From assembly GCF_000327285.1 (NCBI RefSeq), contig NZ_HE998571.1:56149-120148 (forward strand): DNA of 64,000 bases, in the 5' to 3' direction. A model generated the notes under the pieces. The model ran no database searches, had not been told where the DNA came from, and saw nothing but the letters and a program-made list of their open reading frames with translations. Positions within the stretch are counted from its first letter, which is position 1. Each line of letters begins with the position of its first letter. The stretch is from Holdemania massiliensis AP2 (GTDB taxonomy: Bacteria; Bacillota_I; Bacilli_A; Erysipelotrichales; Erysipelotrichaceae). The position numbers and the translations under genes are program-made. Positions 6,024 to 7,660 of the stretch are shown here, one piece after another.

Positions 6024-7028
6024 ATGCCGGTAATCCAAGAAGAGATCCAACATCCGCCCAAGCTTCGTTGTACCAACGATTTTGTCTTTAAAACGCTGTT
6101 AACCTATTTTCCTGCTTTAGGTCAGAAATTTCTCAAAAACATCTCGGAGGAATTGATGAAAACTCATTTTGAAGCGCTGTCCCTCAGTCCCACCGAAAAA
6201 CTTTCACCCTCATCCAGCGGGAAAGATGTACGTTTGGATATCAGTGTACAGACTATCCCTATGCGATTAATCAATTACGAAATGCAGGGCTATGCCAGCG
6301 AAATGAACATCTGTAACCGTTCCGCATATTACGCGGCGATGTTGCTGACACAGCCCGCAAACAAAGGGGCGGCCTATTCCGAATTAGTTCCCGTCAGCCA
6401 AGTCTTCTTTCTTGATTTTCCCTTTCCGCCAAAGGCTGATCAGCCTGACAAGGCGATCCATGTTTACCAACTTCAGGAAAAGGATGAACATGACGTCTTG
6501 ACAAATTTGATAACCATTTATATCATTGAGTTAAAGAAAATAATTCAGATGAATCACAGTTATCAGGAGTTAGACGGATTTGAAAAGTGGTGCTGGTTCT
6601 TTGAAAAGTATGACGAAGAAATCAGCGATCCAATTGTTGCGGAAATCATACAGCGTAACGACATATTTAAGGAGGTAGTCGAAGTGATGAAAGTTATTAG
6701 TTCCGATCCCGCCATCCGCAATGCGGCCTTTGCCCATGAACGTGATTTACGAGATAAAGCTCAGATCAAATATGATGGGATTCAAGAAGGGATTCAAGAA
6801 GGGATCCAGCTTAATCAGCTTCAAAATGCTCAGGCCATGCTCAAAGATCACGTTCCTGATGAGCTTATTTTGAAGTATATCGGTATACGATCAGACCAGC
6901 TAAACAGCCTGAAAGCTCAGATTGCATCTTCCTTAATCCAGGAAAGTGAAGCTTCTTACGATATCTCAAGTCCAGACAGTCCTGCAGTGAATACAACAGA
7001 AGGAACAGAACCCGATGAGAGTCAATAG
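6024..7028 (+). CDS. Rpn family PD-(D/E)XK nuclease (full-length RpnL-like)
   Basis: A 334-residue member of the Rpn/transposase_31 family of PD-(D/E)XK nucleases. GAGGAGGG lies upstream of the ATG. The catalytic signature is visible as RLDIS (D72) and NYEMQ (E86, Q88). The C-terminal third (from about residue 221) is a small helical module with four-residue repeats GIQE-GIQE-GIQ near residue 255 and the segment LNQLQNAQAMLKDHVPDELI. In E. coli Rpn proteins the full-length form is a toxic DNase acting in phage defence, and the separately translated C-terminal domain (RpnS) is its antitoxin. Here an internal Shine-Dalgarno and start occur exactly at this module, and two more copies of the module follow. 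The stop overlaps the next ORF by 14 bp. The gene is intact, so an inhibitor is expected. Confidence 0.85.
   Translation: MPVIQEEIQHPPKLRCTNDFVFKTLLTYFPALGQKFLKNISEELMKTHFEALSLSPTEKLSPSSSGKDVRLDISVQTIPMRLINYEMQGYASEMNICNRSAYYAAMLLTQPANKGAAYSELVPVSQVFFLDFPFPPKADQPDKAIHVYQLQEKDEHDVLTNLITIYIIELKKIIQMNHSYQELDGFEKWCWFFEKYDEEISDPIVAEIIQRNDIFKEVVEVMKVISSDPAIRNAAFAHERDLRDKAQIKYDGIQEGIQEGIQLNQLQNAQAMLKDHVPDELILKYIGIRSDQLNSLKAQIASSLIQESEASYDISSPDSPAVNTTEGTEPDESQ
6684..7028 (+). CDS. Intragenic RpnS-like antitoxin, internal start
   Basis: Inside the Rpn gene, AAGGAGGT (6669-6676) lies seven bases before an in-frame GTG (6684) and ten before an ATG (6687). That is as good a ribosome site as any in the window, yet it lies in mid-gene. 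Translation from it would give a 113-114 residue protein identical to the Rpn C-terminus, the same arrangement as the RpnS antitoxins known from E. coli. The size matches the two separate downstream copies (117 and 101 residues). The internal site is seen directly; its use is inferred. Confidence 0.65.
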   Translation: MMKVISSDPAIRNAAFAHERDLRDKAQIKYDGIQEGIQEGIQLNQLQNAQAMLKDHVPDELILKYIGIRSDQLNSLKAQIASSLIQESEASYDISSPDSPAVNTTEGTEPDESQ

Positions 7029-7639
7029 TTTCACGCTGGCTGCCCAAAATGCGGCCTTTGCCCATGAACGCGACTTACGAGATAAAGCTCAGATCAAATA
7101 TGATGGGATTCAGGAAGGAATTCAAGTTGGTATAAAAGAAGGGATCCAGCTTAATCAGCTTCAAAATGCTCAGGCCATGCTCAAAGATCACGTTCCTGAT
7201 GAGCTTATTTTGAAGTATATCGGTATACGATCAGACCAGCTAAACAGTCTGAAAGCTCAGATTGCATCTTCCTTAATCCAGGAAAGTGAAGCTTCTTACG
7301 ATATCCCAAGTCCAGACAGTTCTGCAGCGGCTACAATAAAAGGAACAGAAACAGATGAGATTCAATAAGTTCACGCTGGCTGCCCAAAATGCGGCCTTTG
7401 CCCATGAACGTGATTTGCGAGATAAAGCCCAGATCAAATATGATGGGATTCAAGAGGGGATTCATGAAGGAATTCAAGTTGGTATAAAAGAAGGGATCCA
7501 GCTTAATCAGCTTCAAAATGCTCAGGCCATGCTTAAAGATCACGTTCCTGATGAGCTTATTTTGAAGTATATCGGTATACGATCAGACCAGCTAAACAGC
7601 CTGAAAGCTCAGATTGCATCTTCCCTAATCCAGGAAAGT
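6720..7639 (+). repeat. Three tandem copies of the Rpn 3' module (328/340-bp units)
   Basis: Near-identical units begin at 6720, 7048 and 7388, each opening with AATGCGGCCTTTGCCCATG; the third is cut short near 7639. Unit length grows from 328 to 340 bp through a nested 12-bp (four-codon) repeat: GIQE-GIQE-GIQ, then GIQE-GIQV-GIKE-GIQ, then GIQE-GIHE-GIQV-GIKE-GIQ. The high DNA identity, including silent sites, points to recent tandem duplication. Confidence 0.92.
7015..7368 (+). CDS. Stand-alone RpnS-like module, second copy
   Basis: A 117-residue protein that repeats the Rpn C-terminal module after a new N-terminus (MRVNSFTLAAQ replaces the Rpn sequence before NAAFAHERD). It has three full four-residue units, against two in the Rpn gene. 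The ATG overlaps the Rpn stop (ATG at 7015, TAG at 7026) in the +1 frame. Only a weak AGAAGGA lies about ten bases upstream, so coupled reinitiation is likely. By analogy with RpnS it may bind and block the full-length nuclease or another Rpn. It could also be a non-functional duplication. Confidence 0.65.
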   Translation: MRVNSFTLAAQNAAFAHERDLRDKAQIKYDGIQEGIQVGIKEGIQLNQLQNAQAMLKDHVPDELILKYIGIRSDQLNSLKAQIASSLIQESEASYDIPSPDSSAAATIKGTETDEIQ

Positions 7640-7660
7640 ATAAATACATGCAACTTCTGA
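7355..7660 (+). CDS. Stand-alone RpnS-like module, third copy
   Basis: A 101-residue third copy of the module, starting with ATGAGATTCAATAAG, which again overlaps the preceding stop by 14 bp and again moves to a new reading frame. It carries four full four-residue units (GIQE, GIHE, GIQV, GIKE). The Ser/Asp/Pro-rich tail of the other copies is replaced by INTCNF. AAAAGGA lies about ten bases before the ATG. The function is inferred only from similarity to the Rpn C-terminus and the RpnS precedent. Confidence 0.6.
   Translation: MRFNKFTLAAQNAAFAHERDLRDKAQIKYDGIQEGIHEGIQVGIKEGIQLNQLQNAQAMLKDHVPDELILKYIGIRSDQLNSLKAQIASSLIQESINTCNF

What the first reader, a model, noticed from the sequence alone, without database searches (positions are those of the whole stretch)
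6720..7660. Tandem antitoxin cassette: three RpnS-like modules with 2, 3 and 4 four-residue repeats
The C-terminal module of the nuclease is duplicated twice downstream. Each copy starts with an ATG overlapping the previous stop by 14 bp, so each lies in a new frame and can be coupled in translation. Each copy also adds one 12-bp unit (GIQE/GIQV/GIKE/GIHE). In known RpnS proteins the repeat number varies between strains and lies in the dimer interface. An array holding several repeat lengths side by side could provide antitoxins of differing specificity, a reservoir for recombination into the full-length gene, or protection against Rpns from other strains. I know of no description of such an array.
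Basis: partly seen in the sequence, partly recalled or inferred. Interest (0 to 1): 0.88.

Follow-up and report, generated by a model that had tools for sequence, protein, structure and literature searches.

The report
Length-coded antitoxin array behind Rpn nuclease
Next to a predicted DNA-cutting defence gene in a Holdemania gut bacterium sit two extra copies of the gene's own predicted off-switch, each one repeat unit longer than the last, which would likely neutralise versions of the nuclease other than the one beside them.

Summary
A PF12784 (Rpn-type) nuclease gene (6024-7028) is followed by two ORFs (7015-7368, 7355-7660) that copy its C-terminal module, each overlapping the previous stop by 14 bp, with 3 and 4 four-residue units against the parent's 2. 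The copied unit matches a predicted internal antitoxin (RpnS) starting at ATG 6687 behind AAGGAGG. The two copies carry 10 core substitutions, all synonymous. Independent Holdemania protein records show other lengths of both modules and a full-length protein with the terminal module's C-terminus, so this is not an assembly artefact. One downstream rpnS copy is already known (E. coli ypaA, rpnCS). New here: 4 of 27 surveyed loci outside E. coli have two copies, and neighbouring toxin and copy have equal repeat length in only 3 of 43 scored pairs, no more often than unlinked modules (27 of 196); E. coli K-12 rpnE/ypaA also differ by one unit. By the published rule that one extra unit abolishes inhibition (tested on RpnC), most copies should not inhibit their neighbour. 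I infer antitoxins of other specificity that also recombine into the toxin gene, as in orphan-immunity arrays. Function is untested.

The parts
6024..7028 (+). Predicted Rpn-type nuclease (RpnL), 334 aa from ATG 6024; a longer frame opens at ATG 5946
   Evidence: PF12784 E 2.9e-27, 96.3 bits against cut-off 27.4; related proteins P0015 and P0016 also start at the 6024 methionine
6498..6526 (+). Candidate internal promoter TTGACA-17-TATCAT inside rpnL, 171 nt before the internal SD
   Evidence: 11 of 12 consensus matches; at least one such hit in 14 of 2000 shuffles; same sequence and same distance to the SD in the four other Holdemania rpnL genes tested. The total number of promoter-like sites in the region is not above chance (5 against 4.4)
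6669..6675 (+). AAGGAGG, candidate ribosome-binding site of the internal start
   Evidence: Codons TTT-AAG-GAG and ATG 6687 identical in all five Holdemania genes; SD scan
6687..7028 (+). Module 1: predicted intragenic antitoxin RpnS, 113 aa, in frame with rpnL, 2 units (6777-6800)
7000..7004 (+). AAGGA, weak SD for module 2, 10 nt before its ATG
7015..7368 (+). Module 2: separate RpnS copy, 117 aa, 3 units (7105-7140); start overlaps the rpnL stop by 14 bp
   Evidence: 5 private core substitutions, all synonymous
7340..7344 (+). AAGGA, weak SD for module 3, 10 nt before its ATG
7355..7660 (+). Module 3: separate RpnS copy, 101 aa, 4 units (7445-7492), own C-terminus; start overlaps the module 2 stop by 14 bp
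   Evidence: 5 private core substitutions, all synonymous; predicted long helix 8-61 plus two helices

Best explanation
Behind a predicted Rpn nuclease gene lie two extra, separately readable copies of its own predicted antitoxin module (RpnS), with three and four 4-residue units against the gene's two, and they would likely neutralise Rpn nucleases of other repeat lengths rather than the one they follow. Shown by sequence: an internal start and ribosome-binding site mark module 1; modules 2 and 3 begin at the equivalent position and are chained by 14-bp overlaps; their cores keep the same protein while silent sites change; unit number varies between strains; modules recombine with each other and with full-length genes. 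Inferred: a conserved internal promoter-like site and the overlaps give one message with antitoxins of three helix lengths; each length pairs with itself and blocks only nucleases of that length, so module 1 holds the resident nuclease, while modules 2 and 3 cover nucleases of other strains or newly arisen lengths and serve as cassettes that can replace the C-terminus of the toxin gene.
For: 10 of 10 core substitutions synonymous, 5 on module 2 and 5 on module 3, against 10 of 11 nonsynonymous in the tail. dN/dS below 0.5 in 38 of the 45 L-S pairs with a usable value. L has a start with an SD of 5 nt or more near the S start in 34 of 46 pairs, against 0.08 at random places. Same-locus L and S equal in length in 3 of 43 scored pairs (one corrected by eye); K-12 rpnE/ypaA differ by one unit. 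Published: one added unit abolishes RpnC-S inhibition and matching restores it (PMC10327210). Module capture: E. coli L174, L171, L172; Holdemania P0016, P0017. Strain variation in unit number. RpnA-S (7TH0) is the first PDB match of the module 3 model.
Against: No function was tested. The length rule rests on one protein pair in E. coli. Equal length is not significantly rarer than between unlinked modules (Fisher p 0.31 and 0.16), so mismatch may be plain drift. P0002, a middle module with 2 units, would match a 2-unit nuclease if its strain has one. K-12 RpnE is annotated as inactive. Gene conversion from constrained rpnL genes could also lower dN/dS. No nuclease with 3 or 4 units was seen in Holdemania, although 90% clustering could hide one.
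Confidence: 0.52

Rival explanations
1. Modules 2 and 3 are extra doses of antitoxin for the resident nuclease; the length rule is loose in this family and length drifts without effect.
For: Shared core and predicted operon; the rule was tested only on RpnC; equal length is not significantly avoided.
Against: If the rule holds here, +1 and +2 units would prevent inhibition; no sign that length is kept equal in 26 of 29 pairs outside E. coli or in the 19 E. coli loci with a downstream copy.
Confidence: 0.22
2. The modules are mainly a recombination store: duplicates that supply new C-termini to the toxin gene, with little function as proteins.
For: Captured modules in E. coli rpnE and in P0016 and P0017; hybrid middle copy.
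Against: Synonymous-only core changes private to modules 2 and 3, and starts with SD-like sites, point to selection on the small proteins themselves.
Confidence: 0.13
3. Mismatched modules poison or titrate module 1 by forming mixed dimers, so they activate the nuclease; or, as HTH-like dimers of different span, they bind DNA.
For: The repeat lies in the helix that dimerises in RpnA-S, and HTH relatedness and the EcoR124 spacer analogy are raised by Zhong et al.; TrpR-like PDB matches follow 7TH0 in the fold search, none significant.
Against: No operator or activation evidence was sought or found.
Confidence: 0.1
4. Assembly artefact of near-identical repeats.
For: 17-contig draft with highly similar repeats.
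Against: Independent protein records, among them two modules on one 4.16-Mb Holdemania massiliensis contig and P0002 on 8 contigs; intact ORFs; purely synonymous core changes; relatives with the same kind of layout.
Confidence: 0.03

Closest known systems
Rpn toxin-antitoxin genes of E. coli with intragenic RpnS and separate downstream rpnES (ypaA) and rpnCS (Zhong et al. 2023, PMC10327210; parts 1-3 of 4 read, supplements not)
   Same: PD-(D/E)XK nuclease with internal start for a small C-terminal protein; four-residue repeats in its first helix that vary between strains; separate downstream copy; fusion of copy and nuclease body reported
   Different: Here two downstream copies of graded length, chained by 14-bp overlaps; the systematic length difference between nuclease and copy is not stated in the parts I read
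Strings of esaG and tipC immunity genes of type VII secretion toxins (Garrett et al. 2022, PMC9484751; abstract and outline seen)
   Same: Tandem non-identical antitoxin paralogues that recombine with each other
   Different: There for secreted polymorphic toxins between cells; the immunity gene is not copied out of the toxin gene, and specificity is not described as repeat length in what I saw
Orphan immunity gene arrays of Vibrio cholerae T6SS clusters (Kirchberger et al. 2017, PMC5361080; abstract and opening seen)
   Same: Retained immunity genes that no longer match the resident effector, proposed to guard against kin with older effectors
   Different: Built by horizontal transfer and displacement of effectors; here by duplication and, by inference, unequal recombination within one locus

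Membership tests
Rpn (RpnL/RpnS) toxin-antitoxin family | PD-(D/E)XK nuclease domain of the Rpn/PDDEXK_2 type | tested here: met
   PF12784 above its curated cut-off
Rpn (RpnL/RpnS) toxin-antitoxin family | In-frame internal start with ribosome-binding site before the C-terminal module | tested here: met
   By sequence: AAGGAGG and ATG 6687, conserved in five Holdemania genes. Use in translation not tested
Rpn (RpnL/RpnS) toxin-antitoxin family | RpnS fold: long first helix and a three-helix bundle, as in 7TH0 | tested here: met
   Model with helices 8-61, 66-73, 77-99, mean pLDDT 80.4, pTM 0.49; 7TH0 ranks first in PDB, probability 0.98, target TM 0.78, rmsd 0.6 over 37 columns, but E-value 0.52 and no sequence-level PDB match
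Rpn (RpnL/RpnS) toxin-antitoxin family | Four-residue repeats in helix 1 whose number varies between strains | tested here: met
   2, 3 and 4 units in the window; 1 to 4 units in other Holdemania records
Rpn (RpnL/RpnS) toxin-antitoxin family | RpnL toxic and DNA-cutting; RpnS binds and inhibits it | not testable with these tools
   Needs bench work
Separate downstream rpnS gene (ypaA, rpnCS type) | Short gene just downstream, homologous to the C-terminus of the same nuclease | tested here: met
   Modules 2 and 3
Separate downstream rpnS gene (ypaA, rpnCS type) | A single downstream copy, as described in E. coli | tested here: not met
   Two copies here and in three other loci (L221 second copy weak)
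Orphan-immunity arrays of polymorphic toxins | Tandem non-identical antitoxin paralogues with recombination among them | tested here: met
   Hybrid middle copy; module capture
Orphan-immunity arrays of polymorphic toxins | Toxin delivered to other cells by a secretion system | not tested
   No search for secretion signals or genes was run; works like, not filed as a member

The most novel reading that the evidence does not exclude
Rpn loci across bacteria keep a heritable library of length-coded antitoxins out of step with their own nuclease: one message carries the matching antitoxin plus antitoxins against the lengths used by neighbouring strains or mobile Rpn genes, and recombination swaps any library member into the toxin. 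It would be an intracellular phage-defence counterpart of orphan-immunity arrays, with specificity written as helix length.
Probability: 0.33. Interest if true: 0.82.

Novelty: new variant of a known kind. Interest (0 to 1): 0.62.

Why it matters
Downstream rpnS genes have been described as second copies of the antitoxin. If they usually have the wrong length for the toxin they follow, as here and in E. coli K-12 rpnE/ypaA, then what they neutralise is an open and directly testable question. Swapping of modules between toxin gene and companion also offers a simple route for the rapid change in repeat number that Zhong et al. attribute to phage pressure.

Tried and rejected
Active avoidance of length matching: tested against pairs of L modules from different loci or strains, and not significant (3 of 43 against 27 of 196, Fisher p 0.31; against 13 of 74 nearest neighbours, p 0.16). 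Only the absence of matching is claimed.

Assembly artefact: rejected. PDB relative of module 3 by sequence: only a designed helix bundle at E 0.71. Pfam domains in the two small ORFs: only hits under the cut-off. Intrinsic terminator behind module 3: the pattern scan lists none there; its three hits in the region (one inside module 2, at 7245-7264) are near the chance mean of 2.1. GTG 6684 as the internal start: dropped, because that codon is ATT or GTA in the relatives while ATG 6687 is invariant. One search printed leader 1 one base out of register; one search gives it correctly.

Limits and dropped rows. The loci come from search listings that are cut off (one search says more matches exist), and not every listed match was fetched, so the 27 loci are not a census; stretches that end early can hide copies. 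Dropped before the count of 43: L131 (45-aa fragment), L078 (identity 0.53; difference -12) and L221 second copy (identity 0.38). The script scored L141 as equal because its gap lies near the edge; by eye it is -4, so I count 3, not 4. The same edge filter may also inflate the equal count among unlinked pairs. G001 loci on C24 and C25 stand outside the counts; on C24 (L019), where the rpnL body is an N run, the readable tail and the copy differ in repeat length by eye.

Full report
WHAT IS THERE. The window lies on contig 5 of a 3.81-Mb, 17-contig genome. The nuclease ORF 6024-7028 matches PF12784 (E 2.9e-27). Two ORFs follow, 7015-7368 and 7355-7660, each a copy of its C-terminal module.

UNIT AND START. 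Inside the nuclease gene AAGGAGG (6669-6675) precedes ATG 6687. The codons TTT-AAG-GAG and this ATG are identical in five Holdemania rpnL genes, the other four being 50-51% identical to the window's protein. From this ATG, and from the starts of both downstream ORFs, the leader before the shared NAAFAHERD core is 11 codons. So the duplicated unit is the predicted intragenic RpnS. Among the 46 L-S pairs found here, L has a start codon with an SD of at least 5 nt near the position of the S start in 34 (0.74), against 0.08 at random places in the same genes.

INTERNAL PROMOTER. TTGACA-17-TATCAT (11 of 12 matches) lies at 6498-6526. At least one such hit occurs in 14 of 2000 shuffles of this gene, and the same site stands at the same distance from the SD in the four other Holdemania genes tested. 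Over three lineages, 34 of 103 invariant columns share a codon; of the five invariant columns in the stretch scored as hexamer codons, three are identical (TTG, ACA, ATC), and the other two differ only at bases outside the hexamers. The number of promoter-like sites in the region as a whole is at chance level (5 against 4.4). Zhong et al. cite transcription starts inside all E. coli rpn genes (PMC10327210). If active, the site would give one message carrying modules 1, 2 and 3 without the nuclease (inference).

SELECTION. Over the 74 core codons shared by the modules there are 10 variable sites: 5 private to module 2, 5 private to module 3, none private to module 1, all synonymous (p about 1.7e-7 for all being synonymous under neutrality). 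The core was delimited as protein-identical stretches, which favours this result at the edges. The tail shared by modules 1 and 2 has 10 nonsynonymous and 1 synonymous differences. In the wider set dN/dS is below 0.5 in 38 of the 45 pairs with a usable value (median 0.28, highest 0.67). A neutral copy beside a strictly constrained one would give about 0.5 (inference).

ORIGIN. Module 2 has a leader like module 3's and a tail like module 1's; module 3 has its own C-terminus. The simplest history is one ancestral L plus one separate S, then unequal exchange between their cores (inference). Protein records show the middle type with 1, 2 or 3 units (P0003, P0002, P0001), terminal types with 1, 2, 3 or 4 (P0010, P0007, P0005, P0006; the first unit of P0006 is altered), and two modules on one 4.16-Mb contig (P0003, P0009). 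P0016 and P0017 are full-length-type proteins with 1 unit that end in the terminal module's C-terminus. In the two relatives where the interval could be read (L264; L265 by a 37-nt match to the transporter end) helicase and transporter lie 1.0-1.5 kb apart with no rpn between them.

HOW GENERAL. PF12784 searches gave matches in 96 of 264 genomes of the order at E 1e-3, 26 of 392 at E 1e-10 and 40 of 394 at E 1e-10; these sets overlap. From the listed places I read 120 fetched stretches and the loci returned by the searches. Among 175 distinct RpnL-like ORFs outside E. coli, 27 have a downstream module within 700 nt, 23 with one and 4 with two: the window, L142, L221 and L245. The second copy in L221 is weak (38% identity) and the first in L142 is short (72 aa).

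LENGTH MISMATCH. Of 31 pairs outside E. coli I set two aside (L131, L221 second copy). Of the remaining 29, 3 are equal in length (L244, the second nuclease of L245, L256, all with little or no repeat) and 26 differ, 24 of them by a multiple of four residues in the repeat zone; the exceptions are L152 (-51) and L157 (+15) (L141 read by eye). In E. coli I fetched 15 rpnE loci; 12 have ypaA and in all 12 the unit numbers differ (L,S by eye: 0,1; 5,1; 5,2; 1,4; 8,4; 5,0; 6,2, seven length types), and 3 have a single gene. Eight rpnC loci were fetched; K-12 has no downstream copy, and in the other 7 the lengths differ (-6, -10 or -14; the repeat sequences themselves have diverged). The E. coli loci were picked from hit lists, not at random. 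In the scored set 3 of 43 same-locus pairs are equal, against 27 of 196 pairs of L modules from different loci or strains and 13 of 74 nearest-neighbour pairs (Fisher p 0.31 and 0.16). So neighbours are not kept equal; that they are kept unequal is not shown.

WHY THIS BEARS ON FUNCTION. Zhong et al. added one unit to RpnC-S and lost inhibition; adding it to both partners restored it. By that rule most downstream modules should not restrain the nuclease they follow, whereas the intragenic module always matches. The constrained cores say that the proteins matter. I therefore favour antitoxins of other specificity, with recombination into the toxin gene as a second role. The second role is seen in E. 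coli sequence: L174 rpnE carries a ypaA-type module throughout (122 of 123 nt to the L178 copy in the 5' part, 75 of 75 nt to the copies of L179, L170 and L167 in the 3' part, against 49 of 72 for the best L module), and L171 and L172 join an L-type 5' part to a ypaA-type 3' part (75 of 75 nt, against 51 of 72 for the best L module). Zhong et al. mention such fusions and independent origins of the downstream copies.

STRUCTURE. The AlphaFold model of module 3 has a long helix (8-61) that holds the repeats and two short helices (mean pLDDT 80.4, pTM 0.49). E. coli RpnA-S (7TH0) is its first PDB match (probability 0.98, target TM 0.78, rmsd 0.6), although the E-value is 0.52 and no match reaches 0.001.

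COMPARISON AND NOVELTY. The family is known and a single downstream copy is known. I found no description of two or more copies, or of the length mismatch, in the listings or in parts 1-3 of PMC10327210; its part 4 and supplements were not read, and the PNAS version is not held. Two later papers that cite it were checked only for passages naming it and add nothing on this point. The closest functional analogues are esaG and tipC strings (PMC9484751, abstract and outline) and T6SS orphan-immunity arrays (PMC5361080, abstract and opening). Hence: new variant of a known kind.

Noticed in passing
E. coli ypaA loci, L164 and several of L167-L179: ypaA is annotated as a pseudogene in K-12 and as 'missing N-terminus' in many other records, although an ORF of 57-74 aa reads through without a stop.
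   Followed up: partly
G000, eight listed rpn-type places outside and inside the window: The genome holds at least eight PF12784 genes (10 matches tallied). Of the seven others listed, six were fetched and none shows a downstream module by the script.
   Followed up: partly
L245 (G733 C21): A nuclease gene followed by two overlapping modules (first overlap 23 nt), then a second nuclease gene with its own module: a compound rpn cluster.
   Followed up: partly
L014, L019 (G001): The bodies of rpnL genes in this Holdemania draft are runs of N, with only the repeat-bearing ends readable.
   Followed up: no
L152, L157, L199 (G301 C1): Another C-terminal type with YAKE/KENEA coiled-coil-like repeats, where downstream copies differ by lengths that are not multiples of four (-51, +15).
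   Followed up: no
L163 (Oscillospiraceae MAG JAISBH010000089.1): A distant rpn gene with a downstream module 8 residues longer in the repeat zone, outside the class of the window.
   Followed up: no
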